This document shows, piece after piece, positions 5,436-53,970 of a stretch of 64,000 nucleotides of DNA. The notes below the pieces were generated by a model, which saw only the letters and a program-made list of their open reading frames with translations, did no database searches and was not told the origin of the DNA. Source of the stretch: Tomocerus qinae (taxonomy: Eukaryota; Arthropoda; Collembola; Entomobryomorpha; Tomoceridae); NCBI GenBank assembly GCA_020055645.1, contig CM034546.1:59644001-59708000 (forward strand), in the 5' to 3' direction. The position numbers and the translations under genes were made by a program. Each line of letters starts with the position of its first letter. Position 1 is the first letter of the stretch.

Positions 5436-6930
5436 ATGAAGTTAGAAAATATTTCTGATACATTCGGTCTTCAGTCATTTGAAATTAAATTGGAGCGTTT
5501 GAATGAAGAGGATTTCAATGTATTTTATAAAAAATACGTGTTGAACGAAACTAAACAGATTCATAATGGAGAAAGTCCTTTTAAGTATCATTTATTTCAA
5601 AAATCATTCACCAACCGAAGAAATTTGAAAACTCACCTACGTAGTCACAGCGGAGAGAAAGATAAACCTATGTACCGAATGTGAAAAATCATTTACCAGT
5701 CAAAGTTATTTAAACTATCATCTACAAGTCCACGATGGAGAAAGTCTGAAGTGTCCTATATGCGAAAAATCATTTTGCACTCCAAGTTATCTAAACACGC
5801 ATATCCGGGGTCACAGTAAAGAAAAGCCAACTAAGTGTACCATATGCGGTGAGTCATTTTCCAATCAAAGGGATTTAAATAATGATAAAAGTGTTGACAG
5901 TGAAGCAAAACTTCATATGGCCTGCTCTCCGTGCAAGAAATCATTTTTCGGGGAAAATGCTATCAACAGTCTTCAGTCTTCTACTTATTCAAAATCGAGA
6001 GAAGCCTTATACTTGTAACGTATGTTGCAAATCATTTTCAAAACCGGACCCCTTGAGAGGTCATAAATTGATTCATAGTGGCGAAAAACCTTACAAGTGT
6101 ACTTTATGTGATAAATCATTCACTCAAGGAAGTCATTTAAAATCTCATTTAACTACTCACACCAAAGAAAGGCCTTTCCAATGTACAACGTGCAGCAAAT
6201 CATTTTCCAGCCGAAATCATCTAAATATTCATGCACGCATACATAGCGGAGTAAAGCCTTATAAGTGCACTCTATGTGACAAATCATTTTGTCAATCTTC
6301 TGCATTAAAGATTCATATACGTAATCATGTTGGAGAGAAACCTTACAAATGTACTTTATGTGACAAATCATTTGTCCAAAAAAGTCATTTGACCACTCAT
6401 CTAAATGTTCACAATGGAAAGAAGCCTTATAATTGTAATTTATGTGAAAAGTCATTTTTCACCCGAAGTGACTTAAGCAAACATATTCGTACCCACAGTT
6501 GGGAGAAGCCTTATAAATGTAAACTGTGTGGTAAATCTTTTTCCCAAATAAGTTATTTACACACCCATCAGCGTGTCCATAGTGGTGAAAGGCCTTTTAA
6601 ATGTGACACATGTAGGAAATCGTTTTCACAGTCTAGCCATTTAATAACCCATTCACGACCTCGCAAGAGAACCTACAAGTGCAAATTCTGTTAAAAATTA
6701 TTTTCCCAATTTAGTGATTTGAATATTCATCAGAGAATTCACAATGGGGACAAACCATACGCATTTGTACTTATACTTCGTGTGGAGAATCATTTTCCCA
6801 TCAAAGTGGATTACAAAATCATTTACGAAATCACAGAGGAGAAAAGCCTTACAAGTGCCATTTATGTGCGAAATCATTTTCGCAAAAATATAATTTAAAC
6901 AGACATCTACGCATTCACAGCCGTCATTAG
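5436..6930 (+). pseudogene. C2H2 zinc-finger gene A1, broken
   Basis: The leader opens at ATG 5436 directly after TTTTCAGAG and encodes the family N-terminal module (LERLNEEDFNVFYKKY). Unlike its relatives it runs straight into a degenerate finger with both Cys lost and stops at 5684. Finger coding then continues in other frames, with shifts near 5660 and between 5860 and 5990. A long open stretch (5882-6694) carries about eight C2H2 fingers with YKC-LC-KSF spacing and HSGEKP-type linkers. A stop at 6692-6694 interrupts the next finger (CKFC then stop), and a further shift near 6765 breaks the last ones before the ancestral stop at 6928-6930. At least four lesions make this a pseudogene, although the open part could still yield a truncated protein. 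Ancestral role: sequence-specific nuclear DNA binding. Confidence 0.8.
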
Positions 6931-7413
6931 ATTTGTGCAATTGTAAAATGAGTGACGAAAACTGTATTCTAAATGAAGCCCACATTAATTAAACATTGTA
7001 ATGGTATATTTATAGTTGATTTTTAGCTCTGGAGAAACTCTAAAAATCTAAAATCATAGAATAATATACACGTTTGAATAATATTATGTAACTTGGTAAA
7101 AATGTATTTTTTGAAAACATTTTTATGGAATTTGGAGAATGCTATTAAAAATAAAATCACGTAGTAATGTTTAACGTTGGTTAAATGTAAGAATAATCTT
7201 ATATACACAAAGCAAAACACTTATGCAATATATACAAAATACAAGTCTATCAAGAACACACAGACACCTTATCATGACGTGCATGCATTGCAACCTGTTT
7301 TATAAATGCGAACGGGGGACTAACTGTTGGCGTTGCCGTGAAGGTGAGGGCTACTTATTACGTATCTCACAACCCAACCATTCATCCAAACTTTCAATCA
7401 TGTCTTCATTTAA
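6931..7413. other. 3' flank of A1
   Basis: Non-coding spacer between A1 and B1, repeated with small differences after A3 (27145-27632). No other feature seen. Confidence 0.5.
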
Positions 7414-7435
7414 GGCGGGAACCAACATAAACAAC
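7414..7435 (+). promoter_or_regulatory. conserved upstream motif of gene B1
   Basis: GGCGGGAACCAACATAAACA, the family motif. Downstream, AACAACG|GTA at 7581-7590 is a conserved probable donor of a non-coding first exon, whose acceptor is the TTTTCAG just before the leader at 7733. Confidence 0.5.
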
Positions 7436-8521
7436 AACAAAACATTAAATTTTGTTGCAATCATTATTTTATATTACAACGGTTTTCCTCATTTTAACGT
7501 CTTAATATAATTTCAATTTTAGTTACATAAAATTTTAAACGGGGTGTTTTGTTTCAAATTAGTTCATTTTGCAGGCTATAAACAACGGTAACTTGTTTTT
7601 CAATACATTGTACATTCGCTGGTGGCTGGCAATTATTTATTTATTTATTTTTGCATAAAAAATAATAAATACGGTGTATGGTAATTAACACTTAGAAAAA
7701 TTGACTTTTGTACATTTATTTTGTGTTTTCAGAGATGACGTTAAATCATTACTTTGATGCGTTTGACCAAAAAGTATTGGTAATCAAATTGAAGCGTTTG
7801 GATGAAGAGGATTTCTGTTTATTTTACAGCAAGTATAAAAGGTAATATTTATGATGATTATAATTTTTGCTACCTAGGCTTTGTAGTGAAATGCGATGTG
7901 CTATGGTAAGTGGTAATAATATTGGGGAGGTAGACATTTTGCATGTCCCTTCAATTTACCCACATATCTAATTATTCCATTCATTTTGGCAATTGTGTTA
8001 ATTGGCAGCTGTAATATCTGTAGTACTATAATAATGGTCTCTTTAAATTATTTTCAGGGAAGATGAAAGTATAAAAGAGAAGATTACTTATTCGAATAGC
8101 ACTGAATGGAAAATTAGAGATGATGGTTACTCAGTGAGACGCCTATTGAATACTAAAACTTTGGGCCAGGAAAATAACTTCATCTATTGGAAAAGTCATA
8201 AAAGAATTAGAGAATCAAGATTAAAAGGTGGGCTGTGCAAAAAATCATTTTCACATCGTGGAAATGGTGTAAGACCATTTAATTGCAATCTGTGCGACAA
8301 GACGTTTACACAAGTTGGACATTTAAATTTGCATATGAAATCTCATAGTGGAATTAAAGATTCTCGCTGCAATCTATGTCGTAAAAGTTTTGTGTCGAAA
8401 CAGAGTTTAAAGTTACATATTGCGGGAGTACATAACATGAGCGACGAAAAACCGTTCCAGTGCGATTTATGTCACAAACGATTTCCATCAGAATTGTATT
8501 TGAAAAATCATAAGAAAAGTC

Positions 8522-8685
8522 GGCTAAATCCTAGTATACCGACGCTCAACCGAATAGACCGATATATAGCTCATTCGAAAGATCTCGTCGAGCTGATCAC
8601 GAATATGGCATTGATTTTTGGGGCAACTCCCCAAATAAGAAAGTTATGGTCGGTTAAAGTTGAAAATATGACTATTTAAAATGCT
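8522..8685 (+). repeat. left terminal inverted repeat of Merlin
   Basis: 164 bp, starting GGCTAAATCCTAGTATACCG and ending AAAATGCT. It pairs with 10422-10585 with about ten mismatches, several clustered in the outer ten bases. Confidence 0.93.
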
Positions 8686-8788
8686 ATATTTTCTGAAAAC
8701 ATACACCATTAACAACTGTATAATAATATAGTAATGATAGTATTATGGCAACGATATAAACACAGCAAACTGCCTTAGTATAATTTAT

Positions 8789-10421: not shown

Positions 10422-10585
10422 AGCATTTTAAATAGTCATATTTTCAACTTTAACCGACCATAACTTTCTTATTTGGGGGGTTGCCCCCAAAATCAATGAC
10501 ATATTCGTGATCAGCTCGACGAGATCTTTCGAATGAGCTATATATCGGTCGATTCCGTTGAGCGTCGGTATACTAGGAATGTTCC
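10422..10585 (-). repeat. right terminal inverted repeat of Merlin
   Basis: Reverse complement of the left repeat. On the minus strand it starts GGAACATTCCTAGTATACCG. It is followed directly by the target duplication GAAAAGTC and by zinc-finger sequence. Confidence 0.93.
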
Positions 10586-12380
10586 GAAAAGTCATCGCAC
10601 GGAAAGGAATTTCAATTGTGAAACTTGCCTTAAATCATTTAAAACGCGACAAAGTTTAACGCTTCACAAAATAGTACACAGTGGAGAAAAGCCATTTCGA
10701 TGTATTTTGTGTGAGAAATCATTTTCTTGGAATAGCGGCTTGAGGAGTCACATAAAAACCCATACAGGTGAAAAGCCATATAAATGCAGTACCTGTGTAA
10801 AATCATTTTCAACTAGTGATATGTTAAAGATTCACACTCGAATTCACAGCGGGGAAAAACCATACAAGTGTTCGATATGTGACAAATCATTCTCTCGGAC
10901 AGGTCATTTAAAAAACCATTTAAAAATCCATACTGGGGAGAAACCTTATCAATGTGATTTATGTCTAAAATCGTTTGTAGATCGATACCGTCTAAACACT
11001 CACAAACGAGTTCATACTGGGGAGAAACACTATAAGTGCACATTGTGTGACAAATTATTTTCTCAAATGGGTTATTTGACCGTTCATTTACGAATTCACA
11101 GTGGCGAAAAGCCATACAAGTGTCACTTGTGTGACAAATCGTTTTACAGACCGAGTATGTTAAAGACTCATATTCGCATTCATACTGGAGTGAAATCCAA
11201 AAGGCCTTTCTTGTGTAACTTCTGTGGCAAATCATTTCGCACTACAGATAATTTAAACAGTCATACACGTTCTCACACTGGCGAAAAGCCTTACAAGTGT
11301 GACGTATGTAACAAATCATTTTCAAGTGTAAGTTATTTTAACATACACGTACGCATTCACAATGGGCAGAGGCCCTATCAATGCAACTTATGTGACAAAT
11401 CATTCATAAGGCGAAGTGGTTTAGAAGCTCATGTACGTGTTCACAGTGGAGAAAAACCTTTTAATTGTACTGAGTGCAAGAAATCATTTTCCAGACGAAG
11501 TCATTTAATGACCCATTTACGTATTCACAGTGGAGAGAAACCTCATACATGTACATTGTGTGGTAAATCATTTTCTGAAAAGGGTGGTTTAAACTCTCAT
11601 TTAAAAATCCACAGTGGGGAAAAACCATTTCATTGTGACATTTGTCAGAAATCATTTTTAAGGCAAAATCAATTGAAACTACATAAAAGGATTCATAACG
11701 GGGAAAAACCGTATGGATGTACTATGTGCGAAAAACCATTTCCAAGTCAAACTAACTTAAACAGTCACATTCTTTTTATACACACTCGGGAAAAACCTTA
11801 CAGATGTACAATATGCAATAAGTCCTTTCCTGTACAATGCAGTTTAACCAGTCATCTACGCGTCCACAATGGAGAGAAACGTTATAAATGCAATTTATGT
11901 GGCAAATCATTTTCCGACAACAGTACATTAAGTACCCACGTATGTAGTGGTGAAAAGCCTTATAAATGTGACATGTGTGAGAAATCATTTTCAGGGCGAG
12001 GTCCCTTAAACGAACATATAAAAGTTCACAGTGGAGAGACACCCTATAAATGTAACTTGTGTGACAAATCATTCAAAAGGAAAATCGGTTTAGAATCTCA
12101 TGTACGTGTTCACAGTGGAGAAAGGCCTTATAAATGTACTGACTGCAAGAAATCATTTGCCAGACGAAATAGTTTAATGTACCATTTAAGTACGGTTCAC
12201 AATAGGGAGAAACTGCACAAGTGTAACATTTGCGAAAATTTATTTTTTAGCAAAACCAGTTTAAATGATCATTTACCTGTTCATAGTAAAGAAAGGCCTT
12301 ATAAGTGTAACATATGTCACAATTCATATTCCCGTCATAGATATTTCAAAGTACATCTCCGATTGCACGAGAAAGAATGA

Positions 12381-13717: not shown

Positions 13718-13722
13718 ATATC

Positions 13723-14382: not shown

Positions 14383-14454
<72 letters not shown>

Positions 14455-16138: not shown

Positions 16139-18095
16139 ATGACGTTGAAACATTACTTTGATATGTTATCAGAAGGGAAATCCGGGTTAAAATGAAAGAG
16201 ACCCGTTTCCTTGTATTCCTGAATCTGGTTCGGCTCAATGCACCTAAATCTGCTAGAATTTATGATCGGGATGAGTGAAATGACTGCACAAAGAGAGAAC
16301 AATAAGATTTGGACACAGACAAAAGTATAAGTTTATTGTGACTAAAATGTGACACGATCTGATTTACTCTAAGTTCCCTAAAACCCGACAATGACTGACT
16401 GACGACGACGAGGATTCCCGCCCAACAGTGACTGACCAGGGTTCACGACCAACTGTGACTGACCAGGGTTCACGACCAACTCGACTGACGAGAGACGAGG
16501 GTTCACGACCAACTGGCAAGAGAGTCTCCGTCTCTCCGAGTATATGGAGTCTCGAAGTGGGAGGTAGGAGTTCAATTAGAATATTAGAGACTTGATTTTA
16601 ATGAGGGTGGTAGTGGGTGGTGAGGAAGCTACTCACAATGTTCGCCTTCAAATCACTGGAAACTAAATTGGAGCGCTTGTAGGAAGATGACTTCAATTTA
16701 TTTTACAGCAAATATATACTACGTGATTAATGTTTGATTATTGACACCGATATCTATTAAATGGGTTCTTAAGCTATAATTTAAAATGTCCGTTTAAATC
16801 TGAATTTTTTTATTAATTTTGATTTGTCCCTTACAATAATTTAAATAGTCCTTAATTCATTTAAATGTAAACATTCATCTGTGCTTTCACAGGGGAAAGT
16901 AACCTTATCAATGTTCCAAATGAGGAAAAGTATGTACCAGTCAAATTTGTTTAAACCATCATTTACAAGTTCACGGTAGAGAAAATATGAAGTATACTTA
17001 TATGTGGAGAATTTTTTCTCTGTCGATGTAATTTAAACGACGATAAAAACATTAAAATTAGAGAAAAGACTTAATATAGCTAGCTCTCCGTGCAAAAAAA
17101 TCATTTTTTCGGGAAAAATCCTATAAAAAGTTACTTATTCAAAATGTAAAGAAGCTTAAAAATTGTGACATATGTTGCAAATCATTTTCAAAACCGAGCC
17201 ACTTGAGAATATCATAAACTTATTCATAGTGGAGAAAAGTTTACAAGTGCACTTTATGTAACAAATCATTCAATCAAAAAATTATTTGAAAACACATTTA
17301 AATACTTACAGTAAAGAAAGGCCTTTCCAATGTACATCGTACAGCAAATCATTTTCCAGCCGAAATCATCTAAATATTCATGCACACATACATAGTGGAG
17401 TAAAGCCTTCTAAGTGCACCCTACGAATGTGATAAATCATTTTGCCAATGTTCTGCATTAAAAAGTCATATACGTAATCATATTGGAGAGAAACCATATA
17501 AATGAACTTTATGTGACAAATCGTTTGCCCAAAACAGTCATTTGACCACTCATCTAAATGTTCACAATGGAAAGAAGCTTTATAATTGTACTTTATGTGA
17601 AAAGTCATTTTTCATCCGAAGTGACTTAAGTCAACATATTCGTACCCATAGTGAGGAGGAGCCTTATAAATGTAAACTGTGTGGCAAATCGTTTTCCCAA
17701 ATAAGTTATTTGCACACCCATCGACGTGTTCATAGTGGAGAAAGGCCTTTTAAATGTGGCACATGTGAGAAATCCGTTTTCACAGTCTAGCCATTTAATA
17801 ACCCATTCACGAACTCACAGTAGAAAGAAAATCTACGAAAGCAAATTCTGTGAAAAATTATTTTCCCAATTTAGTGATTTGAATATTCATCAGAGAAGTC
17901 ACAATGGGGACAAACCATACACGTGTACTTATACTTCGTGTGGAAATAAATGATTTTCCCAACAAGGTGGATTAATAAATCATTTACGAAATCACAGAGG
18001 AGAAAAGCCCTACATGCAAGCACCACTTATGTGCGAAATCATTTTCGCAAAAATCAAATTTAAACAGACATCTACGAATTCACAGCCGTCATTAG
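16139..18095 (+). pseudogene. C2H2 zinc-finger gene A2, heavily broken
   Basis: ATG 16139 follows TTTCAGAG, but the leader is interrupted after ten codons by a 470-bp insertion (16168-16637). It resumes as the N-terminal module with an in-frame stop (CGCTTG TAG). The finger region from about 16895 follows the TTTCACAG acceptor seen in A3 and is crowded with stops and shifts. Longer finger stretches survive at 17542-17790 and 17726-17953. The codon that is a stop in A1 and A3 at CKFC is still GAA here (CKFCEKLFSQ). The ancestral stop is TAG at 18093-18095. This is the most decayed of the three A copies and surely a pseudogene. Confidence 0.9.
16168..16637. mobile_element. unclassified 470-bp insertion in the A2 leader exon
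   Basis: Bounded by a 5-bp duplication ATGTT (16163-16167, 16638-16642); A3 has the empty site (GATATGTTCGCC). The interior has three copies of a GACCAGGGTTCACGACCAACT-like unit (about 16430-16515), giving a short tandem repeat. The ends are ATCAG and CTCACA, without clear inverted repeats or a TG...CA pair. A solo LTR or a non-autonomous element are both possible. Confidence 0.6.
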
Positions 18096-19420: not shown

Positions 19421-22400
19421 ATGACGTTGAATCATTACTTTGATTCGTTTGACCACAAAGCATTGGAAGTTAAATTGAAGCGTTTGAATGAGGAGGATTT
19501 CCGTTTATTTTACAGCAAATATATAAGGTAATAATTATAATAATTATGAGTATTATAATTTTTGATACCTAGACCTTGTAGTGAAATACGCTGTGCGGCG
19601 GTAAAAGTGGTAATATTGGGAAAATATATATAGCCATTTGTATGTTATTTTGACACGTCCCATCGCTTTACCCACATATCTAACTAAGCCATTTATTCAT
19701 CATTGTATGGCCACGCCACAAAAGTTTTTATTTGGGCTTGGACTATATAATTTCGTTACTTGCTCGTTTTAGGTTTCCATATTTGTTACTTATCTAAATT
19801 ATCTCCATACATATTCAATGTTCAATACATATAAAGTCACACTATTTATTAAAAAATACTCCCCCATACAAAACTCATGTGTGTGACATACCTGTTATAT
19901 GACAGCCGCAATACTTATAGTACTATTAAACTATGGTTTCTTAAATATTATTTTCAGGGAAGGTGAAAATATAAAACAGGAGAATGCTTTTTCCAATGGC
20001 CCCGAACGGAAAACTAAAGATGATGGTCATTTAAAGAGACGCCTACTTAACACTAAAACATTTACTAAGGAAAATAACCTCATCTCTTCGAAAAGGCATA
20101 ACAGAATTAGTGAATCCGGTCGGCTTTGCAAAAAATCATTTTCACATCGTGGAAGTTTGAAAAAACATGCGCTACGGCACAATGGGGAAAAGGTGGAAAA
20201 GAATAGAAAATGTTCGTTTTGCAGCAGAACCTACCAGTATAATAGTGACTTGGAAAATCATATAAGAAAGCACACCAGGGAAACTCCTTTCAGATGTCAT
20301 TTGTGTGAAAAGTCATTTTCACGGGAAGAACATTTGAAAAGCCATATTATAAGACACAGTGGTGTAAGACCCTTTCTAAAAAAAAAAAAAAAACTTTCAC
20401 TGCAATATCTGCGACAAGAAGTTTTTAGTATCTTCTCATCTAAAAGCTCATATAAAATCTCATAATGGAATTAAGGACTCTCACTGCAATCTCTGTCATA
20501 AAAGTTTTGTGTCGAAACAGAGTTTAAAGTTACATATGGCGGGAGCACATAACAGGAGCGACGAAAAACTGTTCGAGTGCGATTTATGTCACAAACGATT
20601 TCCATTAGAATTGAATTTGAAAAGGCATAAGAAAAGTCACAGCACAGAAAGTAATTTCAATTGTGAAACTTGCCTTAAATCATTTAAAACGCGACATAAG
20701 TTAAACCTCCACAAAAAGATACACAGTGGAGGAAAGCCATTTCGATGTATTTTGTGTGAGAAATCATTTTCTAATAGCGGCGGCTTGAGGAGTCACATAA
20801 AAACGCATACAGGTGAAAAACCGTATAAATGCAGCAACTGTGCAAAATCATTTTCAGCTAATGTAAGCTTAAAAATTCACACTCGAATTCACAGCGGGGA
20901 AAAACCATATAATTGTACGATATGTGACAAATCATTCTCTCGGACAGGTCATTTAAAAGATCATTTAAAAATCCATACTGGGGAGAAACCCTATCAATGT
21001 GATTTATGCCAAAAATCGTTTATAGATCGATACCATCTAAAACGTCACAAACGAGTTCATACTGGGGAGAAACACTATAAGTGCACATTCTGTGACAAAT
21101 TATTTTCTCGAATGGGTTATTTGACTATTCATTTACGAATTCACAGTGGCGAAAAGCCATACAAGTGTCACTTGTGTGACAAATCGTTTTACAGATCGAG
21201 TATGTTAAAGACTCATATTGGCTATCATACGGGAGAAAAACCCAAAAGATTTTACAAGTGCAATATATGTGACAAATTATTATGCTCTCGAACTTGTTTA
21301 AACAATCATACACGTTCTCACAATGGAGAAAAGCTCTACAAGTGTGACGTTTGCGACAAATCATTTACCAGTCGAAGTTATTTCACTATCCACGAACGCA
21401 TTCACAGTGGAGAAAGACCTTATAAGTGCAATCTATGTGACAAATCATTCATAAGGCGAAGTGCTTTACAAGATCATGTGCGGGTCCACAGTGGAGAAAG
21501 ACCTTTTAATTGTACTGAGTGCAAGAAATCATTTTCCAGACGAAGTCATTTAATGACCCATTTGCGTATTCACAGTGGAGAGAAACCTCATACATGTACG
21601 TTGTGTGGTAAATCATTTTCTGAAAAGGGTAATTTAAACTCTCACTTAAAAATTCACAGTGGGGAAAAACCATACCATTGTGACATTTGTCAGAAATCAT
21701 TTTTAATGCAATATAAATTGAAAATACATAAAAGGATTCATGACGGGGGAAAGCCGTATAGGTGTACTATGTGCGACAAATCATTTTCAGGTCAAAGTAA
21801 TTTAAAAAGTCACATTCTTTTTATACACACTCGAGAAAAACCTTACAGATGTACAATATGCAATAAGTCCTTTCCTGTACAATGCAGTTTAACCAGTCAT
21901 CTACGCATCCACAGTGGAGAGAAACGTTATAAATGTAATTTATGTGGCAAAACATTTTCTGAAAACAGTATATTAAGTACTCACGGATGTAGGGGTAAAA
22001 AGCCTTATAAATGTGACTTGTGTGGGAAATCATTTTCAGGGCGAGGTCCCTTAAACGAACATATAAAAGTTCACAGTGGAGAGACACCCTATAAATGTAA
22101 CTTGTGTGACAAATCATTCAAAAGGAAAATCGGTTTAGAATCTCATGTACGTGTTCACAGTGGAGAAAGACCTTATAAATGTACTGACTGCAAGGAATCA
22201 TTTGCCAGACGTAATAGTTTAAAGTACAATTTAAGTAGGGATCACAGTGGAGAGGAGAGAAACCGTTCAAGTGTAACGTTTGCGAAAAAACATTTTTTAG
22301 CAGAGCCCATTTAAATGATCATTTACCTGTTCATAGTACAGAAAGGCCTTATAAATGTAATATATGCCACAATTCATATTCCCGTCAAAGATATTTCAAA

Positions 22401-25696: not shown

Positions 25697-27144
25697 ATGA
25701 CGTTGAAACATTACTTTGATATGTTCGCCTTAAAATCAATGGAAACTAAATTGGAGCGCTTGGAGGAAGATGATTTCAATTTATTTTACAGCAGATATAC
25801 AAACCCAGATTGATGTTTGATTATGGACACCGATATCTATTAAACGGGTTCTTAAGCTAACTTAAAATGTCCGTTAAAATCTGAATTAGTATTAATTTTG
25901 ATTTGTTCCTAATATATTTGAATTTAAACATTCATCTGTGCTTTCACAGGGGAAAGTAACCTTATCAATGTATCAAATGTGGAAAAGTATTTACCAGTCA
26001 AATTTGTTCAAGCCATCATCTATAAGTTCACAGTACATAAAATATGAAGTGTACTATATGTGGAGAATTTTTTCTCTGTCAATGTAATTTAAACGACGAT
26101 AAAAATATTAAAATTAGAGAAAAGACTTATGTAGTCTGCTCTATGTGCAAAAAAATCATTTTTCGGGAAAAATTCCTATAAAGTCTTCTACTTATTCAAA
26201 ATCGAGAGAAGCCTTATACTTGTAACGTATGTTGCAAATCATTTTCAAAACCGGACCACTTGAGAGGTCATAAATTGATTCATAGTGGCGAAAAACCTTT
26301 CAAGTGCACTTTATGTGATAAATCATTCACTCAAGGAAGTCATTTAAAATCTAATTTGACTACTCACACCAAAGAAAGGCCTTTCCAATGTACATCGTGC
26401 AGCAAATCATTCTCCAGCCGAAATCATCTAAATATTCATGAACCGATACATAGTGGAGAAAAGCCTTATAAGTGCCCTCTATGTGAAAAATTATTTTGCT
26501 AATCTTCTGCATTAAAGATTCATATACGTAATCATGTTGGAGAGAAACCTTATAAATGTACTTTATGTGACAAATCGTTTGCCCAAAAAAGTCATTTGAC
26601 CACTCATTTAAATGTTCACAATGGAAAGAAGCCTTGTAATTGTAATTTATGTGAAAAGTCATTTTTCACCCGAAGTGACTTAAGTAAACATATTCGTACG
26701 CATAGTGGGGAGAAACCTTATAAATGTAAACTGTGTGGTAAATCGTTTTCCCAAATAAGTTATTTACACACCCATCGGCGTGTCCATAGTGGTGAAAGGC
26801 CATTTAAATATGACACATGTGGGAAATCGTTTTCACAGTCTAGCCATTTAATAACCCATTCACGAACTCACAGTAGAAAGACAACCTACAAGTGCAAATT
26901 CTGTTAAACAATATTTTCCCAATTTAGTGATTTGAATAATATTCATCAGAGAATTCACAATGTGGAGAAACCATACACGTGTACTTATACTTCTTGTGGA
27001 AAATCATTTTCCCAACAAGGTGGATTAAAAAATCATTTACGAAATCACAGAGGAGAAAAGCCTTACAAGTGCCAATTATGTGCGAAATCATTTTCGCAAA
27101 AATCTACTTTAAACACTCATCTACGCATTCACAGCTGTGATTAG
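25697..27144 (+). pseudogene. C2H2 zinc-finger gene A3, broken
   Basis: ATG 25697 follows TTTCAGAG and encodes the family module (LERLEEDDFNLFYSRY), but the usual AG|GTAATA donor is lost and the frame stops shortly after. Finger coding resumes after a TTTCACAG acceptor near 25950 in a decayed state. Better-preserved fingers occupy 26190-27144 in three open pieces, cut by a stop in the fourth finger (TTTTGC TAA near 26500) and by the CKFC stop at 26905. That second stop is shared with A1 and absent from A2. The final fingers (26932-27144) are intact and end HLRIHSCD. Clearly a pseudogene as a full-length gene; a short protein from 26596-26907 cannot be excluded. Confidence 0.85.
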
Positions 27145-27936: not shown

Positions 27937-30914
27937 ATGACGTTAAATCATTACTTTGATGTGTTTGACCAAAAAATATTGGAAATCAAATTGAAGCGTT
28001 TGGATGAAGAGGATTTCTGTTTATTTTACAGCAAGTATGAAAGGTAATATTTATGATGATTATAATTTTTGCTACCTAGGCTTTGTAGTAAAATACGCTG
28101 TGCTATGGTAAGTGGTAATATTGGGGAAGTAGTCATTTTGCCTGTCCCTTCAATTTACCCACAAATCTAATTAATCCTTTCATTCTGGAAATTATATTAA
28201 TTGGCAGCTGTAATATCTGTAGTACTATAATAATGGTCTCTTAAATTATTTTCAGGGAAGATGAAAATATAAAAGAGAAGATTACTTATTCGAATAGCAC
28301 TGAATGGAAAATTAGAGATGATGGTCACTCAGTGAGACGCCTATTGAATACTAAAACTTTGGGCCAGGAAAATAACTTCATCTATTCGAAAAGTCATAAA
28401 AGAATTAGAGAATCAAGATTAAAAGGTGGGCTGTGCAAAAAATTCTTTTCACATCGTGGAAGTTTGAAAAAACCTTTACAACGACACAATGGGAAAGAGG
28501 TGGAAAAGAATAGAAAATGTTCGTTTTGTAGCAGAACCTACCAGTATAGCAGTGAGTTGGAAAATCATATAAGAAAGCACACCGGAGAAACTCCTTTCAG
28601 ATGTCATTTGTGTGAAAAGTCATTTTCTCGGGAAGAACATTTAAAAAGACATATTATAGGACACAGTGATGTAAGTCCCTTTCACTGCAATATCTGCGAC
28701 AAGACGTTTGCACAAGTTGGACATTTAAATGTGCATAATATGAAATCTCATGGTGAAATTAAAAATTATAACTGCAATCTCTGCCGTAAAAGTTTTGCCT
28801 GGAAACAAAATTTAAAGGCACATATTGCGACGGTACATAACAGGAGCGACGAAAAACCGTTCGAGTGTGATTTATGTCACAAACGATTTCCATTAGAATT
28901 ATATTTAAAAAACCATAAGAAAAGTCATCGCACGGAAAAGAACTTCAATTGTGATACTTGCCTTAAATCATTTAAAACGCGACAAAGTTTAAACCGCCAC
29001 AAAATGTTACACAGTGGAGAAAAGCCATTTCGATGTATTTTGTGTGAGAAATCATTTTCTGATAGCGGTGGCTTGAGGAGTCACATAAAAACTCATACAG
29101 GTGAAAAACCATATAAATGCAGTACCTGTGCAAAATCATTTTCAACTAGTTCAAAGTTAAAAATTCACACTCGAATTCACAGCGGAGAAAAACCATACAA
29201 TTGTACGATATGTGACAAATCTTTTTCTCGAAAAGGTCATTTAAATACACATTTAAAAATCCACAGCGGGGAAAAACCCTATCAATGCGATTTATGTCAA
29301 AAATCATTTGTAGATCGATCCCACCTAAAAAGTCACAAACGAGTTCATACAGGTGAAAAGGCCTATAAGTGCACTTTGTGTGACAAGCTTTTTTCTGAAA
29401 GTGGTTATTTGACAATTCATTTACGAATTCACAGTGGTGAAAAACCTTACAAATGTGACACGTGTGGCAAATCGTTTTCCAGACGGAGTACATTGAAAAT
29501 TCATACTGACATTCATATGGGAGTGAAATCCAAAAGGCCTTTCTTGTGTAACTTCTGTGGCAAATCATTTTGCACTGCAAATAATTTAAACACTCATACA
29601 CGTTCTCACACTGGTGAAAGGCCTTACAAGTGTGACGTATGTAAAAAATCATTTTCAAGTGTAAGTTATTTTAACATTCACGTACGCATTCACAATGGGC
29701 AGAGGCCCTATCAATGCAACTTATGTGACAAATCATTCATAAGGCGAAGTGCTTTACAAGATCACGTACGTGTTCACAGTGGAGAAAGACCTTTTAATTG
29801 TACTGAGTGCAAGAAATCATTTTCCAAACGAAGTCATTTAATGACCCATTTGCGTATTCACAGTGGAGAGAAACCTCATACATGTACATTGTGTGGTAAA
29901 TCATTTTCTGAAAAGGGTGGTTTAAACTCTCATTTAAAAATCCACAGTGGGGAAAAACCATTTCATTGTGACATTTGTCAGAAATCATTTTCAAGACAAA
30001 ATCAATTGAAACTACATAAAAGGATTCACAACGGGAAAAAACCGTATGGGTGTACTATGTGCGAAAAATCATTTCCAAGTCAAACTAACTTAAACAGTCA
30101 CATTCTTTTTATACACACTCGGGAAAAACCTTACAGATGTACAATATGCAATAAGTCCTTTCCTGTACAATGCAGTTTAACCAGTCATCTACGCGTCCAC
30201 AATGGAGAGAAACGTTATAAATGCAATTTATGTGGCAAATCATTTTCCGACAACAGTACATTAAGTACCCACGTATGTAGTGGTGAAAAGCCTTATAAAT
30301 GTGACATGTGTGAGAAATCATTTACAGGGCGAGGTCCCTTAAACAGACATATAATAGTTCACAGTGGAGAGAGACCCTATAAATGTAACTTTTGTGACAA
30401 ATCATTCAAAAGGAAAATCGGTTTAGAATCTCATGTACGTGTTCACAGTGGAGAAAAGCCTTATAAATGTACTGAATGCAAGGAATCTTTTGCCAGACGA
30501 AATAGTTTAATGTACCATTTAAGTAGGGATCACAATGGAGAGAAACCGTACAAGTGTAACGTTTGCGAAAAATCATTTTTTAGCAGAGCCCATTTAAATG
30601 ATCATTTACCTGTTCACAGTGCAGAAAGGCCTTATAAATGTACTGACTGCAAGAAATCATTTGCCAAACGATATGGTTTAATGTACCATGTAAGTAGGGA
30701 TCACAATGGAGAGAAGCCGCACAAGTGTAACGTTTGCGAAAAATCATTTTTTAGCAGAGCCCATTTAAATGATCATTTACCTGTTCACAGTGCAGAAAGG
30801 CCTTATAAATGTAACATATGCCACAATTCATATTCCCGTCAAAGATGTTTAAAAAAACATCTACGATTGCACGAGAGAGGAAACTTTAATTCTCAGTCCA
30901 ATATTTGGGACTAA
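27937..30914 (+). CDS. C2H2 zinc-finger protein B3, about 27 fingers, intact
   Basis: CDS join(27937..28043, 28256..30914), 921 residues, with a GT-AG phase-2 intron of 212 bp; the lengths sum to a whole number of codons. Residues 1-36 are the family N-terminal module (LKRLDEEDFCLFYSKY), Cys-free and predicted amphipathic. A basic linker leads to one half finger (LCKKFFSHRG), then about 27 canonical C2H2 fingers with TGEKP/SGEKP linkers. One degenerate finger lacks its last His pair (STLSTHVCSGEK). A longer linker (MGVKSKRP) splits the array in two. Fingers 25-26 and 27-28 are a recent 171-bp tandem duplication absent from B1 and B2. The protein ends RLHERGNFNSQSNIWD. Expected to bind a long DNA site in the nucleus; its target and effect on transcription are unknown. 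It is the only whole gene among the three long B copies. Confidence 0.92.
30462..30803 (+). repeat. two-finger tandem duplication in B3
   Basis: Units 30462-30632 and 30633-30803, 171 bp each. Each encodes an ARR/AKR-type finger (MYHxSRDHNGEKP) followed by a FFSRAHLNDHLPVH finger. They differ at few bases, mainly in the first finger's helix (RRNSL versus KRYGL). B1 and B2 have a single copy, so the event is specific to B3. Confidence 0.92.
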
Positions 30915-40577: not shown

Positions 40578-41880
40578 ATGACGTTAAACAATCACGATAC
40601 CTTTGGTCTAAAATCATTTGAGATTAAATTAGAGCGTTTGAATGAAAAGGATTTCAATAGAGTTTACAGAAATTATATAAGGTAACAATTATTTCAGAAT
40701 TTATAAACTTATAAACTTAGTAAAATATGAGGTTCAATGCAGTAATATTTGTAGTTATTATGTTTCCTTAAATATTATTTACAGGGGAAATGAAAATGTA
40801 ACAAGGGAGAGTACTTGTAATAAAACCACTGAAATGAAAGTTAAAAATAATTGTCACTTGGAGAGACGTCTACTGAAGAGAGAAACTGTTGTCCAAGAAA
40901 AAAACTGTAGGTTTGAGAAAAAATCATTTTCACATCGTGGAAGTTTCGTGGAAATTCCCAGTGCTGAAAGGGATTTGAAATGCGATATTTGTTTCAAGTC
41001 ATTTAAAACGCAACAAAATTTAAGTCTACACAAAAGACTACACAATAGTGTGGAAAAGGCATTTCCTTATGATAGCTATTTGAGGAGTCACATAAAAACT
41101 CATACAGGTGAAAAGCCATATAAATGCAGTATCTGTGCAAAATCATTTTCAACTAATTCGAGGCTGAAATTTCACACTCGAATTCACAGCGGGGAAAAAC
41201 CTTACAATTGCACGATATGTGATAAAGCATTTTCGTGGACAGGTCATTTAAATCTCCATTTAAGAACCCATACTGGGGAGAAACCCTTTAAGTGCACATT
41301 GTGTGACAAATCATTTTCTCACATGAGTTATTTAACAATTCATTTACGATTTCACAGTGGTGAAAAGCCATATAAGTGTCAATTGTGTGACAAATCCTTT
41401 CCACGATTAAGCGCTTTGAAGTCTCATATTGGCTATCATACGGGGGAAAAACCTAAAAGACATTTTATGTGTAACTTCTGTGGAAAATCAGTTAGCAGTC
41501 TAGCTAATTTAAACAGTCACACACGTACCCACACTGGTGAAAAGCCTTACAAGTGTAACATTTGCAAAAAATCATTTACCAGTCGAAGTTATTTCACTAT
41601 CCACGAACGCATTCACAATGGAGATAGACCTTATAAGTGTAACTTATGTGACAAATCATTCATAAGAGGAAGTGGCTTAGAGACTCATGTACGTGTTCAC
41701 AGTGGAGAAAAGCCTTATAAGTGTACTGAGTGCAAGAAATCATTTGCAAGAAGAAGTTCTTTAGTTTACCATTTAAGTAGGATTCACAGTGGAGAGAAAC
41801 CTCATGCGTGTAACTTATGTCAAAAATCATTTTCAGTAAAGCGGGATTTAAATTCCCATTTAAGAACCCATCTCCTCTAA
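40578..41880 (+). CDS. C2H2 zinc-finger protein B4, 10 fingers
   Basis: CDS join(40578..40681, 40785..41880), 399 residues, with a phase-2 intron of 103 bp. The ATG follows TTTTCAGAA. Residues 1-35 are the N-terminal module (LERLNEKDFNRVYRNY), one residue shorter than in other B genes. A basic linker precedes one finger (KCDICFKSFK). A Cys-less remnant finger (AFPYDSYLRSHIKTH) follows, a fusion or deletion scar. Nine regular fingers come next and the protein ends HLRTHLL. The extended linker TGEKPKRH occupies the same place as KSKRP in B1 and B3. Fingers 2-9 match B2 and B3, so this is the shortened fourth B copy. AATAAA at 41961 is a plausible poly(A) signal. Presumed nuclear DNA-binding protein; targets unknown. 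Confidence 0.9.
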
Positions 41881-42312: not shown

Positions 42313-43978
42313 ATGGAGCCAAAGTACGACTTCAACATTTTTATCGCCAAATCATTTGAAATTCAATTGAACCGTTTAAATGAAGACGCTTTTAAAACCT
42401 TTTACAGTAAATATTTAAGGTAATAAGATCATGTAATATTAAATTGATTTAATAAAATAATGGAATTTGAACTTTATTTTCAGGGGAAATGAAAGTAGAA
42501 CAATCCAGTTTACATCGCCGATTACTAAAGAATGCCCAATAAAAGGCGATGGAAAGGAAAAGTGTCGTAAAACTGAAAATTGTTTAAAAGAAAAATTAAA
42601 TGGAACCAATCGGAAAATCTGCTTTTTTTGCAAGAAAAATTTTGCAAGCTATTCTGCCCTTCAAGACCATATAAGGGTACACACAAGAGAACATCCATAT
42701 CCATGTAGCTTTTGCAAAAAATCATTTTCACAACATTGTGATTTAAAAAGACATTTACAAAGGCACAACGGGCAAAATTTGGAAAAGAGTAAAAAATGTC
42801 CATTTTGTCACAAAGCATTTAGATCTAACTACGATTTGGAAAACCATATCAGAAAACACACAGGAGAAACTCCTTTTGGTTGTCATTTGTGTGGGAAATC
42901 GTTTTATGTGGAAATGTATTTGAAAAGACATATTCTAAGGCACAGTGGCGCAAGACATTTTAAGTGTAACTTTTGTCAAAAAACATTTACCCAATTTGGC
43001 CATTTAAGTACTCATATAAATATTCACACAAGAGAAAAAGCCTTCAAATGCAGCGTATGTAATAAAACTTTTACTGTAAAAGGTCATTTAAACTTGCACA
43101 TGCAAACTCATAGTGGACTAAAACCTTTTCAGTGTAATGTGTGCCAGAAATGGTTTGCAATAAAAAAACATTTAGAGGTACATGTTCGTAGGATGCATTC
43201 AATTAAAGAAAAGCCTTTTGAATGTGAGTTATGTCAAAAAAAATTTTCAGAGAAAGCATCGTTGAAAGACCATAAAAGAATTCACAGTGACGAAAAGACT
43301 TTCAAGTGTGAAATTTGTCCCAAATCGTTCAAACACCGATCAGGTTTATATATCCACAAAGTAATGCACAGTGGGGTAAAGCGATTTAAATGTAGTTTTT
43401 GTGACAAATCCTTTTCACACAGCAGGAGTTTAAAGAATCACATCCTAATCCACACAGGCGAGAAGCCCTATAAATGCAGCACCTGTACGAAATCATTTTC
43501 AAATAATTCAAGCTTATACAGTCACTTGCGAATCCACAATGGCCAGAAGCCTAAAACCTATCGATGTTATCTTTGTTTTACATACTTTGGAACAAGTACA
43601 GAACTGAATAACCACATTAGAAGACATATTGGTGAAAAACCATACAAATGTGATCGGTGCGAACAATCATTTGTTACCAAAGGAAACTTAAATATGCATA
43701 TGAGAATTCACTCTGGAGAAAAACCTCATCATTGTAGCTTTTGTGAAAAATCATTTCCCAGGATGTACAATTTGGAAAGACATTTGAGAACTCACTCTGG
43801 AGAAAAACCTCATCATTGTAGCTTTTGTGAAAAATCATTTCCCAGGATGCAACATTTGGAAAGACATTTGAGAACTCACAGTGGAGAAAAGCCTTATATG
43901 TGTGATTTATGTCCAAAGTCATTCATAGATAAAAGTGGTTTAAATAACCATTTTAAAATCCACTCTGCAAAAAAATAA
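42313..43978 (+). CDS. C2H2 zinc-finger protein C1, 16 fingers
   Basis: CDS join(42313..42419, 42484..43978), 533 residues, with a 64-bp phase-2 intron (AAG|GTAATA to TTTTCAG). Residues 1-36 are the C-type module (KSFEIQLNRLNEDAFKTFY). A linker rich in charged residues leads to 16 C2H2 fingers, starting ICFFCKKNF and ending YMCDLCPKSFIDKSGLNNHF. Linkers vary more than in the B genes (HTREHP, HSDEKT, HSGVKR). Fingers 14 and 15 are an 84-bp tandem duplication differing at two helix codons only. AATAAA at 44003 is close after the stop. The gene looks whole. Expected role: nuclear DNA-binding regulator, target unknown. Confidence 0.93.
43711..43878 (+). repeat. single-finger tandem duplication in C1
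   Basis: Units 43711-43794 and 43795-43878, 84 bp each. They are identical except for three bases in two adjacent codons (TAC AAT versus CAA CAT), changing helix positions 2 and 3 from Tyr-Asn to Gln-His. Confidence 0.95.
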
Positions 43979-45492: not shown

Positions 45493-46765
45493 ATGGAGTC
45501 AAAGAACGACTTCAACACTTTTTTGGACAAGTCATTCAAAATTCAATTGAGCCGTTTAAGTGAAGACGATTTTAAAATATTTCATAACAAATATCTGAGG
45601 TAATAAATCATGTAACTATTTATTTAATTTAATGAAATCAAGGCAATTGTAATTATAAATTTGCAGGGAGAATGAAGGCAGAACAAGCCAGTGTACAGAG
45701 AATGAACAGGACATTATCAGAGAATGCCAAATAAAAGGCGATGGAAATTTGCAAAATTATCGTCAAACAGAAAATCATTTAAAAAAGAAATCAAATGGAC
45801 CCAATCAGAAAATTTGCTTTTTTTGCAAGAAAAATTTCCCATGTTATTCTGCCCTTCAAATTCACATAAGAGTACACACAAGAGAACTGCCGTATCCATG
45901 TAATTCCTGTAAAAAGTCATTTTCACAACGAAGTTATTTAAAAATACATTTACAAAGGCACACTGGACAAAAGGTGGAAAACAATAAAATATGTATATTT
46001 TGTCAGAAAGTATATAGAAATAACCGCGATTTTGAAAACCATATAAGAAAGCACATCGGAGAAACTCCTTTCAGTTGTCATTTCTGTGAAAAGTCATTTT
46101 CTGCGGAAAACAATTTGAAAAGTCATATTCTGCTGCACAGTGGTGAAAGAAATTTTAAGTGTAATTTTTGTGAAAAAACATACACCCAAGTTAAATATTT
46201 GAACAGTCATTTAAAAATACACACTGTTGGAAAAGTCTTCCAGTGCAGCGTATGTAATAAAAAGTTTGCTCAAAATTGTAATTTAAACAGTCACAAGCAA
46301 ACTCATACTCATAGTGGACTCAAACCTTTTCAGTGCAATGTGTGTCTGAAATGGTTCACAGAGAAAAAATATTTAAATTCGCATGTTGCGAGAATGCATT
46401 TAATTACAGAAAAGCCTTTTGAATGTGAGTTATGTCACAAAAGATTTTATGAAAATAGATATTTGAAAAGCCATAAAAGAATTCACAGTGACGAAAAGAC
46501 ATTTAAGTGTGACATTTGTCCCAAATCGTTCAAACAGCGCTCAGGTTTATATGCCCACAAAGTAATGCACAGTGGGGAAAAGCGATTTAAATGTAGTTTT
46601 TGTGACAAAACCTTTTTACGAATCAGCAATTTGAAGAGTCACATCCTAATTCACACAGGCGAGAAACCATATAAATGTAATTTTTGTGCCAAATCATTTG
46701 CAAAACAATGTCATCTGGACACCCATATACGTGTCGTACATGGTAAAGGAAAGCCTTACAAGTAA
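45493..46765 (+). CDS. C2H2 zinc-finger protein C2, 11 fingers, C-terminally shortened
   Basis: CDS join(45493..45599, 45667..46765), 401 residues, with a 67-bp phase-2 intron. The acceptor before the leader reads GCCGAG where the relatives have GCAGAG, so first-exon splicing may be weaker. The module is KSFKIQLSRLSEDDFKIFH. Eleven fingers follow, similar finger by finger to C6 and C1. The frame stops at GKGKPYK, where C6 continues YKCKLCDKSF; the C-terminal two or more fingers are lost. AATAAA lies at about 46850. An intact but truncated paralogue, probably able to make protein. Confidence 0.87.
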
Positions 46766-47372: not shown

Positions 47373-47645
47373 ATGTATACAAAGCAGGACTTTAACATTT
47401 TTATTGCCAAATCATGTAAAATTAAATTGAAGTGCTTAAATCAAGACGATTTAAAAGTATTTTGTAGTAAACATCTTAAGTATTAAATCACGTACGAGTC
47501 AATCTGCTTTGTTTGCAAGAAAAATTTCAGAAGTTATGCTGCCACAATGGAGAAAATCCGTATTATGTGTGATTTTTGCCCAAAGTCATTGACTGATAAA
47601 CGTGGCTTAGATAATCAATTTAAAATCCACCATGCAGAAAGATAA
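47373..47645 (+). pseudogene. zinc-finger gene C3, collapsed to its two ends
   Basis: ATG 47373 after TTGCAGAGAT opens a worn N-terminal module (KSCKIKLKCLNQDDLKVFC) that ends in a stop where the donor should be. The finger exon is reduced to the start of the first finger (ICFVCKKNFRSY) joined to the last one (CDFCPKSLTDKRGLDN), as found at the two ends of C1. An internal deletion of about 14 fingers, probably by recombination between finger repeats, explains it. Not functional. Confidence 0.85.
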
Positions 47646-49530: not shown

Positions 49531-49754
49531 ATCATGAATAGCACAGCTGTGTTGTTGATCGCTTTGTAAACATAGTAAACATAAAAGTCCATACAAAAAT
49601 CCATAACCAGGTTTATTTTATATACTGGTGTGGTTAGTGTCAACAAAGTGTCCCTGGTATAAAACAATTGCTACAGCATATTGGGAAATTGTAATCAATG
49701 ATTTAATTTGCTACAATTCATTTGACTTTTATAATTATTTGAAAATTTTCAGAG

Positions 49755-51147
49755 ATGGATCCAAAATACGACCTCAACATTTTTGTGGCAAAGTCGTTCA
49801 AAATTCAATTGAAGCGTTTAAGTGAAGACGATTTTAAAATATTTTACAACAAATATCTGAGGTAATAAATAAATAATATAGTATTTATTACTGATTAAGT
49901 AAAAGGCACTTGAACTTTATTTTCAGGGGGAATGAAAATAAAACTTACCAATTTACACCTCCCACCATTGCAAGGAAATGTAAAATAAAAGGCGATGAAC
50001 GTTTGGGAAAATGTCGTCAAACTGAAAATCGTGTCAAAGAAAAATCAAATGGAGTCAATCGGAAAACATGCTTTTTTTGCAAGAAAATTTTCGGATGTTA
50101 TTCTGAACTTGAATGCCATATAAGGGTACACACAAGAGAAAGGCCATATCCATGCAGTTTTTGCAAAAAATCATTTTCACAACGCAGTTATTTGAAAAAA
50201 CATTTACGAAGGGACAATGTTCATAAGGTGGAAAAGAATTGTCTATTTTGCCATAGATCATATAAAAGTAACCAGGAGTTTGAAAATCATATAAGGAAGC
50301 ACATCGGAGAAACTCCTTTCCGTTGTCATTTGTGTGAAAAGTCGTTTTCTGCGGAAAAGAATTTGAAAAATCATATTTTAAGGCACAGTGGTGGAAGAAA
50401 TTTTAAATGTAATTTTTGTGAAAAATCGTACACCCAAGTTAGATGTTTAAACAGTCATTTAAAAATTCACACTGGTGGCATATTCTTCAATTGCAGCTTA
50501 TGTAATAAGATATTTACGCAATTAGGATATTTAAACACTCATCATATCAAAATTCACACAGGAGAAAAGCCCTTCAAGTGCAGCGTATGTAATAAAACGT
50601 TTACTCTAAATGGTCATTTAAACATTCACATGAAAACTCATAGTGGACTCAAACCTTTTAAGTGCAATGTGTGTGAAAAAGTTTTCTCATTGAAAGAATA
50701 TTTAAATGCACATGTTGTGATGTGAGAATGCATTCAACTAAAGAAAAATCCTTTGAATGTGAGTTATGTCACAAAAGATTTAATGAAAATAAATGGTTGA
50801 AAAGCCATTTAAGAATTCACAGTAATGAAAAGACCTTTAAGTGTGAAATTTGTCCCAAATCGTTTAAATACCCAGCAGGTTTATACGTCCATAAAATGAT
50901 GCACAGTGGGGTAAAGCGATTTAAGTGTATTTTTTGTGACAAATCCTTTCCACACAGCTGTAGTTTGAAAAAACATATTATAATTCATACAGGCGAGAAA
51001 CCATATAAATGCAGAACCTGTACAAAATCATTTTCATATTCATCCAATTTAAATAAGCACATCCATAAAATCCATAAATCCAAATCACTCGAAATTTTGA
51101 ACCCTAAAACTTTATCTAAGCCTGGATATCAACGGGTTAACAAATAA
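49755..51147 (+). pseudogene. C2H2 zinc-finger gene C4, one frameshift
   Basis: Leader exon 49755-49861 (module KSFKIQLKRLSEDDFKIFY) and a 65-bp phase-2 intron (49862-49926) are normal. The finger exon reads eight fingers, the second with His replaced by Asp (RRDNV), and stops at 50725. In place of CATGTTGCGAGAATG it has CATGTTGTGATGTGAGAATG, a 5-nt gain that shifts the frame. The other frame is open from 50722 to 51147 with four more fingers and a tail ending SKPGYQRVNK. A single lesion separates the halves, so this is either a young pseudogene making an eight-finger protein or an assembly error. Confidence 0.75.
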
Positions 51148-52075: not shown

Positions 52076-52298
52076 TTTTTAAGGATTATTAAGGAAGGAC
52101 GATGCATACTTATGTAGTTTAGAGTTGAATGGATGATTCATGTAATTATTCCAAGAATTGGCCTGGAAAAGATTATTTGTCACTTAGCTTTCTGCACCCT
52201 GAACTAAACAGTATCATTCACACCCGGCCACCGCTCCGGCCTTGAGCCAAAAATACCAAAACACAAATTGAGAATTTGGGAATCCTTTCTCAATACAA

Positions 52299-52325
52299 GT
52301 CGGGAGCTGAACATAAGTAAACAAT
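52299..52325 (+). promoter_or_regulatory. conserved upstream motif of gene C6
   Basis: GTCGGGAGCTGAACATAAG then TAAACAAT, preceded by GGGAATCCTTTCTCAATAC. Confidence 0.5.
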
Positions 52326-52548
52326 AATACAGAGCACTGCTGTTGTTGATCGCTTTGTAAACATAGTAAAAATAAAAATCCATACAAATATCCAAAACCA
52401 AGTTTATTTTATGTACTGGTGTAGTTGGTGTCAACAAAGTGCCCCTGGTATAAAACAAATACTACAGCATAATATTGGGAAATTGTAATCAATGATTTAA
52501 TTTTCTACAATTCGTTTGATTTTTATAATTATTTGCAAATTTTCAGAG

Positions 52549-53970
52549 ATGGATCCAAAATACAACCTCAACATTTTTGTGGCCAAGTCATTCGAAATTC
52601 AATTGAAGCGTTTAAATGAAGACGACTTTAAAACATTTTACTGCAAATATCTAAAGTAATAAATACATAACGTAAGATTTGTAATTAGTTAAGTGAAATA
52701 ATGGCACTTTAACTTTATTTTTAGGGAGAATGAAAATAAAACAATCCAGTTTACACTGCCCATTTCAAGAGAATCAAAAATAAAAGGCGATGAAAGTTTT
52801 GAAAAATGTCGCAAAAGTGAAAATCGTGTCAAAGAAAAATCAAATGGAGTCAATCGGAAAATCTGTCTTTTTTGCAAGAAAATTTGTGGAAGTTATTCTG
52901 AACTTGAAGGCCATATAAGGGTACACACAAAAGAAATGCCATATCCTTGCAGTTTGTGCAAAAATTCATTTTCACAACGCAGTGGGTTAAAAAAACATTT
53001 ACAAAGGCACACTGGACAAAAGGTGGAAACGAATAAAACATGCCAGTTTTGCCACAGAGCGTTTACATTTAACTACCATTTGGAAAACCATATAAGGAAG
53101 CACATAGGAGAAACTCCTTTCAGTTGTCATTTGTGTGAAAAGTCGTTTTCGGCGAAAAATACCTTGAAACGGCATATTCTAAGCCATAGTGGTGCAAGGA
53201 ATTTTAGGTGTAATTTATGCCAAAAAACATTTACCCGACTTGAAGATTTAAACACTCATAAAAGAATTCACACAGGAGAAAAGCCCTTCAAGTGCAGCGT
53301 ATGTAATAAAACGTTTACTCAAAGTAGTAATTTAACCTGTCACATTCAAATTCATAGTAGTGTCAAACCTTTTCAGTGCAATGTGTGTCAAGAATGGTTC
53401 GCACTGAAAAAATATTTAAATGCACATGTTGCGAGAAAGCATTTAATTAGAGAAAAATCTTTTGAATGTGATTTGTGTCATAAAAGATTTTATGAAAAAG
53501 AATTGTTAAAAAGCCATAAAAAAATTCACAGTGTCGAAAAGACCTTCAAGTGTGACATTTGTCCCAAATCGTTCAAACAGCGATCAGGTTTATACACCCA
53601 CAAAGTAATTCACAGTGGGGAAAAGCTATTTCAATGTGGTTTTTGTGACAAAGCATTTTCAAAAAACAGTAATTTGAAGAGTCACATCATAATTCACACA
53701 GGCGAGAAACCATATAAATGTAATTTTTGTGCCAAATCATTTGCACACCAAAGTAATCTGAACAGCCATATACGTGTCGTACATGGTAGGGAAAAGCCTT
53801 ACAAATGTAAGCTGTGTGACAAATCTTTCTCCACAAGAAGTTATTTAATAGTTCATGTACGTATTCACATTGGAGAGAAGCCTTACAAATGTAACTTTTG
53901 TGGCAAATCATTTTCCCATCCAAATTCTTTTAAAACTCATGTACGATTGCACACAGGAAAAAAACTTTAG
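52549..53970 (+). CDS. C2H2 zinc-finger protein C6, 13 fingers
   Basis: CDS join(52549..52655, 52725..53970), 450 residues, with a 69-bp phase-2 intron. The donor is CTAAA|GTAATA in place of the family's AG|GTAATA, still a GT donor but weaker; the acceptor is TTTTTAG. The ATG follows TTTTCAGAG. The module is KSFEIQLKRLNEDDFKTFY. Thirteen fingers follow. The first has lost its central Phe (CLFCKKICGSY), the rest are canonical, and the end is HVRLHTGKKL. It keeps the two C-terminal fingers lost from C2. If the weak donor fails, translation could start at the ATG at 52936 inside the finger exon. Probably functional DNA-binding protein. Confidence 0.9.

What the first reader, a model, noticed from the sequence alone, without database searches (positions are those of the whole stretch)
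5436..52655. A short, Cys-free N-terminal module shared by every gene of the zinc-finger array
Eleven leader exons (5436, 7735, 16139, 19421, 25697, 27937, 40578, 42313, 45493, 49755, 52549) plus the relic at 47373 encode about 36 residues with the core LxRLxExDFxxFYxKY. In the spliced genes it is a separate exon of 104-107 nt ending in phase 2. It is not the Cys pattern of ZAD, and I do not recognise KRAB, SCAN or BTB. It is kept in A, B and C genes whose finger arrays have diverged, while finger content turns over. That suggests a protein-interaction surface, as KRAB is in vertebrates, for a lineage-specific family.
Basis: partly seen in the sequence, partly recalled or inferred. Interest (0 to 1): 0.85.

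Follow-up and report, generated by a model that had tools for sequence, protein, structure and literature searches.

The report
Shared N-terminal module, clustered zinc-finger genes
Some fifty neighbouring zinc-finger genes in this animal genome begin with the same unnamed 36-residue module on its own small exon, which looks like an independently evolved counterpart of the KRAB-type modules of vertebrate zinc-finger genes.

Summary
The module is real. A profile finds 11 of the 12 listed places at E 9.1e-20 or better; 16139 is one end of a copy split by about 470 bp. Eight copies splice in frame, phase 2, into C2H2 finger exons; five of these open 10-27 fingers. Four listed places are relics. 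Six leader searches of the 334-Mb genome place every match better than E 0.8 on one chromosome, 57.1-60.7 Mb. In the loci fetched, 56 copies score E<1e-6; 53 have a phase-2 donor, 52 have fingers downstream. Of 121 finger arrays sampled, 29 of 31 inside that stretch and 0 of 90 outside have the module. Pfam gives nothing better than E 0.029. Leader dN/dS is 0.39-0.58 by method; finger contact residues show 1.06, scaffold 0.36. AlphaFold gives a modest two-helix hairpin. Best reading: a protein-interaction module that works like KRAB, ZAD or fish FiNZ, homologous to no family I could test. Partner, function and splicing are inferred; the species is unidentified, so lineage restriction is untested.

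The parts
5436..5540 (+). leader module, relic gene: no donor, reads on into a degenerate finger; fingers in broken frames
7735..7841 (+). leader exon, 107 nt, phase 2, donor GTAATA
8058..8679 (+). finger exon joined to 7735 after a 216-nt intron; 2 fingers, then stop
16139..16167 (+). 5' end of a split leader copy
16168..16637 (.). about 470 bp that interrupts this leader copy; no second copy in the sequence held
16638..16719 (+).
19421..19527 (+). leader exon, 107 nt, phase 2
19958..20465 (+). finger exon of 19421 (intron 430 nt); 2 fingers, then stop; a 20-finger frame follows at 20380 in another frame
25697..25801 (+). leader module, relic: no donor, fingers in broken frames
27937..28043 (+). 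leader exon, 107 nt, phase 2
28256..30914 (+). finger exon of 27937 (intron 212 nt); spliced protein 921 aa, 27 fingers
40578..40681 (+). leader exon, 104 nt, phase 2, donor GTAACA
40785..41880 (+). finger exon of 40578 (intron 103 nt); 399 aa, 10 fingers
42313..42419 (+). leader exon, 107 nt, phase 2
42484..43978 (+). finger exon of 42313 (intron 64 nt); 533 aa, 16 fingers
45493..45599 (+). leader exon, 107 nt, phase 2
45667..46765 (+). finger exon of 45493 (intron 67 nt); 401 aa, 11 fingers
47373..47479 (+). leader relic: core residues changed, weak GTATTA donor, no open finger exon of its own
49755..49861 (+). leader exon, 107 nt, phase 2
49927..50725 (+). finger exon of 49755 (intron 65 nt); 6 fingers, then stop; 4 more in another frame at 50677
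52549..52655 (+). leader exon, 107 nt, phase 2
52725..53970 (+). finger exon of 52549 (intron 69 nt); 450 aa, 13 fingers

Best explanation
The module is a short, independently exonic N-terminal domain that defines one expanded clade of poly-C2H2 zinc-finger genes in this genome. Shown from sequence: about 36 residues, its own 104-107-nt exon ending in phase 2, the same phase in 53 of 56 copies, in frame with finger exons, conserved core, constraint on amino acids, finger contact residues evolving about three times faster (dN/dS) than finger scaffold. Inferred: the leader is an amphipathic helical hairpin that presents one constant surface (F10, L19, R21, L22, F27, Y31, Y34 in the first sequence of A1) to one partner, probably a chromatin co-repressor or a copy of itself, while each gene's fingers choose a different DNA target. 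In this it works like KRAB in tetrapods or FiNZ in cyprinid fish: constant effector, variable reader. Invading repeats are the likeliest targets, by analogy only; nothing here tests that.
For: Module and splice anatomy. One chromosomal family with fingers downstream. No known domain: Pfam; NCBIfam; PDB sequences; BESS. Constraint: N:S 1.58 against 3.03 expected, ratio 0.52, 49 copies, 23 codons; dN/dS 0.39 in 10 gene pairs, against 1.06 at contact positions -1, 2, 3, 6 and 0.36 in the rest of the finger; leader more identical than the intron next to it in 9 of 11 pairs. No RNA-structure reason for the conservation in the one exon folded: z -0.54. Hairpin: helices 4-21 and 24-35, mean pLDDT 74.7. 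Precedent: FiNZ, 28 residues, one exon upstream of a finger exon, no known relatives, clustered (PMC10547256, section 4 read).
Against: No expression, splicing, partner or target data. Leader and linker have nearly the same dN/dS (0.39 and 0.44). In 2 of 10 pairs leader pN exceeds pS. Contact dN/dS near 1 also fits relaxed constraint or misaligned fingers. pTM is 0.31 and five models range from pLDDT 63.5 to 74.7. 3 of the 56 copies have no start codon at the usual place (L013, L016, L017).
Confidence: 0.6

Rival explanations
1. The module is a self-association surface (as ZAD is known to be, recalled) and mainly joins two finger proteins; no co-repressor is bound through it.
For: Short helical hairpin with conserved aromatic and aliphatic positions; many co-encoded paralogues.
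Against: Nothing tests it; monomer prediction only. No sequence kinship to ZAD.
Confidence: 0.22
2. It is a very diverged member of a known small helical family (BESS, KRAB, PYRIN-like) that the profile searches miss.
For: 36 residues are little information. PYRIN appears for 2 of 53 members at best E 0.089. By eye the core resembles the BESS motif order (recalled, weak).
Against: No Pfam family better than E 0.029 in any of the 53 or 10 members scanned. The BESS model finds 28 matches in the genome at E<=10 and none is a leader. Foldseek against PDB: 3 matches, best E 5.3.
Confidence: 0.1
3. The leader is a passenger: similar only because the genes are recent duplicates or exchange sequence by conversion, with no domain function.
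For: Tandem paralogues; leader dN/dS like the linker's; low synonymous divergence between some distant copies.
Against: Fewer amino-acid changes than expected. Introns beside it differ more in 9 of 11 pairs, with many gaps, while 10 of 11 leader pairs have none. The core persists between the 57, 59.7 and 60.6 Mb groups. Relic genes have damaged leaders.
Confidence: 0.08

Closest known systems
FiNZ-ZNF genes of cyprinid fish (PMC10547256; passages and section 4 seen)
   Same: Very short N-terminal sequence with no known relatives, on one exon upstream of a finger exon, large clustered family, finger diversification
   Different: Animal group, length (28 against about 36), no sequence of FiNZ was held to compare; FiNZ has a knockdown phenotype on transposons, this has no functional data; 684 genes in zebrafish against about 56 copies here
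KRAB-ZNF genes of tetrapods
   Same: Small N-terminal module exon, finger exon, tandem clusters, variable contact residues
   Different: No KRAB match in Pfam scans; no TRIM28/KAP-1 ortholog in insects (statement of PMC6444547, passages)
ZAD-ZNF genes of insects
   Same: N-terminal module of a lineage-expanded C2H2 family in arthropods
   Different: ZAD is a Cys-based zinc-binding domain (recalled); this has no conserved Cys. Only 2 ZAD matches in the whole genome, both just over the cut-off
ZF271-like / APEZ families of pea aphid and Oncopeltus (PMC6444547, passages)
   Same: Clustered, fast-changing poly-C2H2 genes with pseudogenes
   Different: Described there as having no domain besides the fingers; this clade has a shared leader. 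Whether these are the same lineage is unknown
BESS motif (PF02944)
   Same: Short helical, arthropod-typical interaction motif
   Different: Model matches 28 other places and no leader

Membership tests
poly-C2H2 zinc-finger genes | tandem C2H2 fingers downstream of the module | tested here: met
   52 of 56 copies have at least 2 finger motifs downstream on the same strand; for 47373 these belong to the next gene; window finger exons match PF00096 and PF13465
KRAB-ZNF | KRAB box by profile | tested here: not met
   no KRAB match at E<=10 among 53 leaders; HMMER filters limit weak matches
KRAB-ZNF | binding of TRIM28/KAP-1 | not testable with these tools
   needs protein assays
ZAD-ZNF | ZAD (PF07776), conserved Cys | tested here: not met
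   no ZAD match among leaders, no conserved Cys, 2 genome matches elsewhere
FiNZ-ZNF | short N-terminal sequence on one exon before a finger exon, clustered | tested here: met
   description of FiNZ
FiNZ-ZNF | FiNZ sequence similarity | not tested
   no FiNZ sequence was held
FiNZ-ZNF | repression of transposons | not testable with these tools
   needs experiments
BESS | match to PF02944 | tested here: not met
   28 matches at E<=10, none at a leader

The most novel reading that the evidence does not exclude
An effector module of the KRAB kind arose independently in an animal lineage with almost no ZAD genes, spread with one tandem clade of about 50 finger genes on one chromosome, and recruits a so far unknown silencing partner to sequences that the diversifying fingers track, most likely transposons.
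Probability: 0.35. Interest if true: 0.82.

Novelty: new variant of a known kind. Interest (0 to 1): 0.6.

Why it matters
Large zinc-finger gene expansions in arthropods outside the ZAD group have been described as having no domain but the fingers (PMC6444547, passages), which leaves open how they act. A short constant module that could be tagged or tethered would make that question directly testable, and would add a case of the same gene design (small module exon plus variable finger exon) evolving separately in tetrapods, cyprinid fish and this lineage.

Tried and rejected
RNA structure as the cause of conservation: one exon folded, z -0.54. BESS kinship: rejected. Known domain: Pfam, NCBIfam and PDB sequences gave only weak single matches: TRAM domain E 0.029-0.034, PYRIN 0.089 in 2 of 53, PLC-beta EF-hand 0.093, TTRAP 0.095, PBP2 0.2, and in PDB a CD-NTase chain E 0.03 over 14 residues. 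Fold search of the hairpin: nothing below E 5.3. Same module at other finger clusters: 12 loci scanned (10 fetched plus L004, L007), best E 0.39; L104 does not reach the start of its array, so 11 of 12 are informative. The 18.86 Mb genes seem to have another upstream coding part.

Species: not settled. Carotenoid CarR model absent, biotin synthase only below cut-off, ZAD 2 matches, insect odorant receptor 1 match, BESS 28 matches of which 11 reach the cut-off. Passages of PMC12510726 and PMC12611250 gave no assembly of this size; a literature search on the assembly size gave none that fits. 'Arthropod' is likely, not proved.

Literature: searches found no description of this module; the library holds only openly licensed PMC papers. 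Most papers there were seen as listings only.
Full report
What is there. The window is bases 59,644,001-59,708,000 of contig C1 (140.45 Mb) of an unnamed 334.4-Mb genome in 115 contigs. A profile of the leader peptides finds 11 of the 12 listed places at E 9.1e-20 or better and 16139 at 0.023. Reading the sequence shows that 16139 and a stretch at about 16638-16719 are the two ends of one copy, interrupted by about 470 bp; the second part carries an in-frame TAG. The neighbourhood of this copy is 86.6% identical over 1271 aligned bases to that of 25697.

Gene models. Eight of the 12 places give a consistent model: a 104- or 107-nt exon, phase-2 donor GTAATA or GTAACA, intron of 64-430 nt, an acceptor such as ATTTTCAG, and an in-frame finger exon. 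Intact proteins have 27, 10, 16, 11 and 13 fingers (27937, 40578, 42313, 45493, 52549). 7735, 19421 and 49755 stop after 2, 2 and 6. 5436, 25697, the split copy and 47373 are relics. In 21 of the 56 copies a CAG lies within 9 nt before the start codon, so there the leader is probably the second exon, behind a non-coding one; this is inference. No RNA data were available.

Extent of the family. Six searches of the whole genome with single leaders report matches up to E 10. All but two lie on C1 between 57.11 and 60.68 Mb; the two others, also on C1, have E 1.67 (122.5 Mb) and 0.84 (62.06 Mb) and look like chance; the first was read and is unlike the leader. In the sequence fetched for these places an iterated profile gives 56 copies at E<1e-6, 11 of them in the window, plus degraded pieces (E-values are for this small set, not for the genome). 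A donor in phase 2 was found for 53 of 56; the script took too early a GT in three of them (7735, 27937, L037), where the expected donor at +107 is also present. Downstream fingers on the same strand: 52 of 56; exceptions are L034 (broken), L085 (156 bases held), L063 and L026 (none within 1.5 kb), and for the relic 47373 the fingers counted belong to the next gene.

Is it specific? The 150 best-scored C2H2 fingers (of 6414 first-look candidates, so a sample) collapse into 121 arrays. Of 31 arrays in the 57.1-60.7 Mb stretch 29 have a leader within 6 kb upstream; of 90 elsewhere none has. The starts of other clusters were also scanned directly: 12 loci, 11 of them informative, best E 0.39. So the module marks one clade and is not a general feature of finger genes here.

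Known families. Scans of 53 leaders against Pfam gave four families, each in 1 or 2 members at E 0.034-0.095; the 10 window leaders gave one at 0.029. NCBIfam and PDB sequence searches gave nothing convincing. The BESS model finds 28 places in the genome and no leader. ZAD has two matches in the whole genome, 29.2 and 28.6 bits against a cut-off of 28.

Selection. Three estimates for the leader: pairwise, 663 pairs of 51 copies with dS 0.1-1, median dN/dS 0.47, pooled 0.58, 5.6% of pairs above 1; changes on a tree of 49 copies, N 183.6 and S 116.4, against an expected N:S of 3.03, ratio 0.52; ten pairs among 17 gene models, 0.39. In those ten pairs the linker has 0.44, the finger scaffold 0.36 and the four DNA-contact positions 1.06. 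Contact pN exceeds pS in 7 of 10 pairs, with one tie. In 2 of 10 pairs leader pN exceeds pS. The leader is more identical than its intron in 9 of 11 pairs and than the first 120 bases of the linker in 9 of 11; 10 of 11 leader pairs need no gap, and the gaps of the other come from my choice of start codon. Constraint on the module is therefore real but moderate. Contact values near 1 fit diversification, relaxed constraint or partly misaligned fingers. Among 369 distinct finger cores the contact positions -1, 2, 3, 6 have entropies of 3.3-3.6 bits.

Mechanism. AlphaFold on the ten window leaders gives helices 4-21 and 24-35, mean pLDDT 74.7, pTM 0.31. Conserved positions fall into a hydrophobic and aromatic pattern. 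I infer a helical hairpin that binds one constant partner, while fingers supply variable DNA targets. Which partner, and whether the outcome is repression, is not shown. The design is that of KRAB-ZNF and FiNZ-ZNF genes; for FiNZ the exon layout, the lack of known relatives and the clustering are described in PMC10547256 (section 4 read).

Novelty. The searches listed under Tried and rejected found no description of the module. PMC6444547 states that the expanded aphid and Oncopeltus ZF271-like proteins have no domain besides fingers (passages). The species could not be named, so I cannot say whether this clade belongs to those. I rate it a new variant of a known kind.

Noticed in passing
window 1488-3011 (+): 507-aa open frame with a subtilisin-type S8 peptidase domain (Pfam E 6.5e-48); best PDB matches are prokaryotic-type subtilisins, with PCSK9 further down. 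Origin not examined.
   Followed up: partly
window 16168-16637: About 470 bp inserted into a leader exon; no other copy in the sequence held, nature unknown.
   Followed up: partly
window 10500-12380 and 20380-22314 (+): Two long 20-finger frames that are not in frame with the leader exons before them (7735, 19421); either broken genes or models that need another exon.
   Followed up: no
window 33874-36267 (+): Three consecutive open frames of 196, 283 and 286 aa without a convincing Pfam match.
   Followed up: no
G000 C1:18.854-18.864 Mb (L102, L103): Another finger cluster whose genes share a different, alignable stretch before the finger exon, with a TTTCAG acceptor; possibly a second, unrelated N-terminal part.
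   Followed up: partly
G000 C1, C2, C18, C28: Eight places on four contigs with the same finger score (35.1 bits, E 9.0e-6) in frames of 59-68 aa, as expected of a dispersed repeat carrying one finger.
   Followed up: no
L013, L016, L017: Three leader copies with an otherwise good module but no start codon at the usual place.
   Followed up: no
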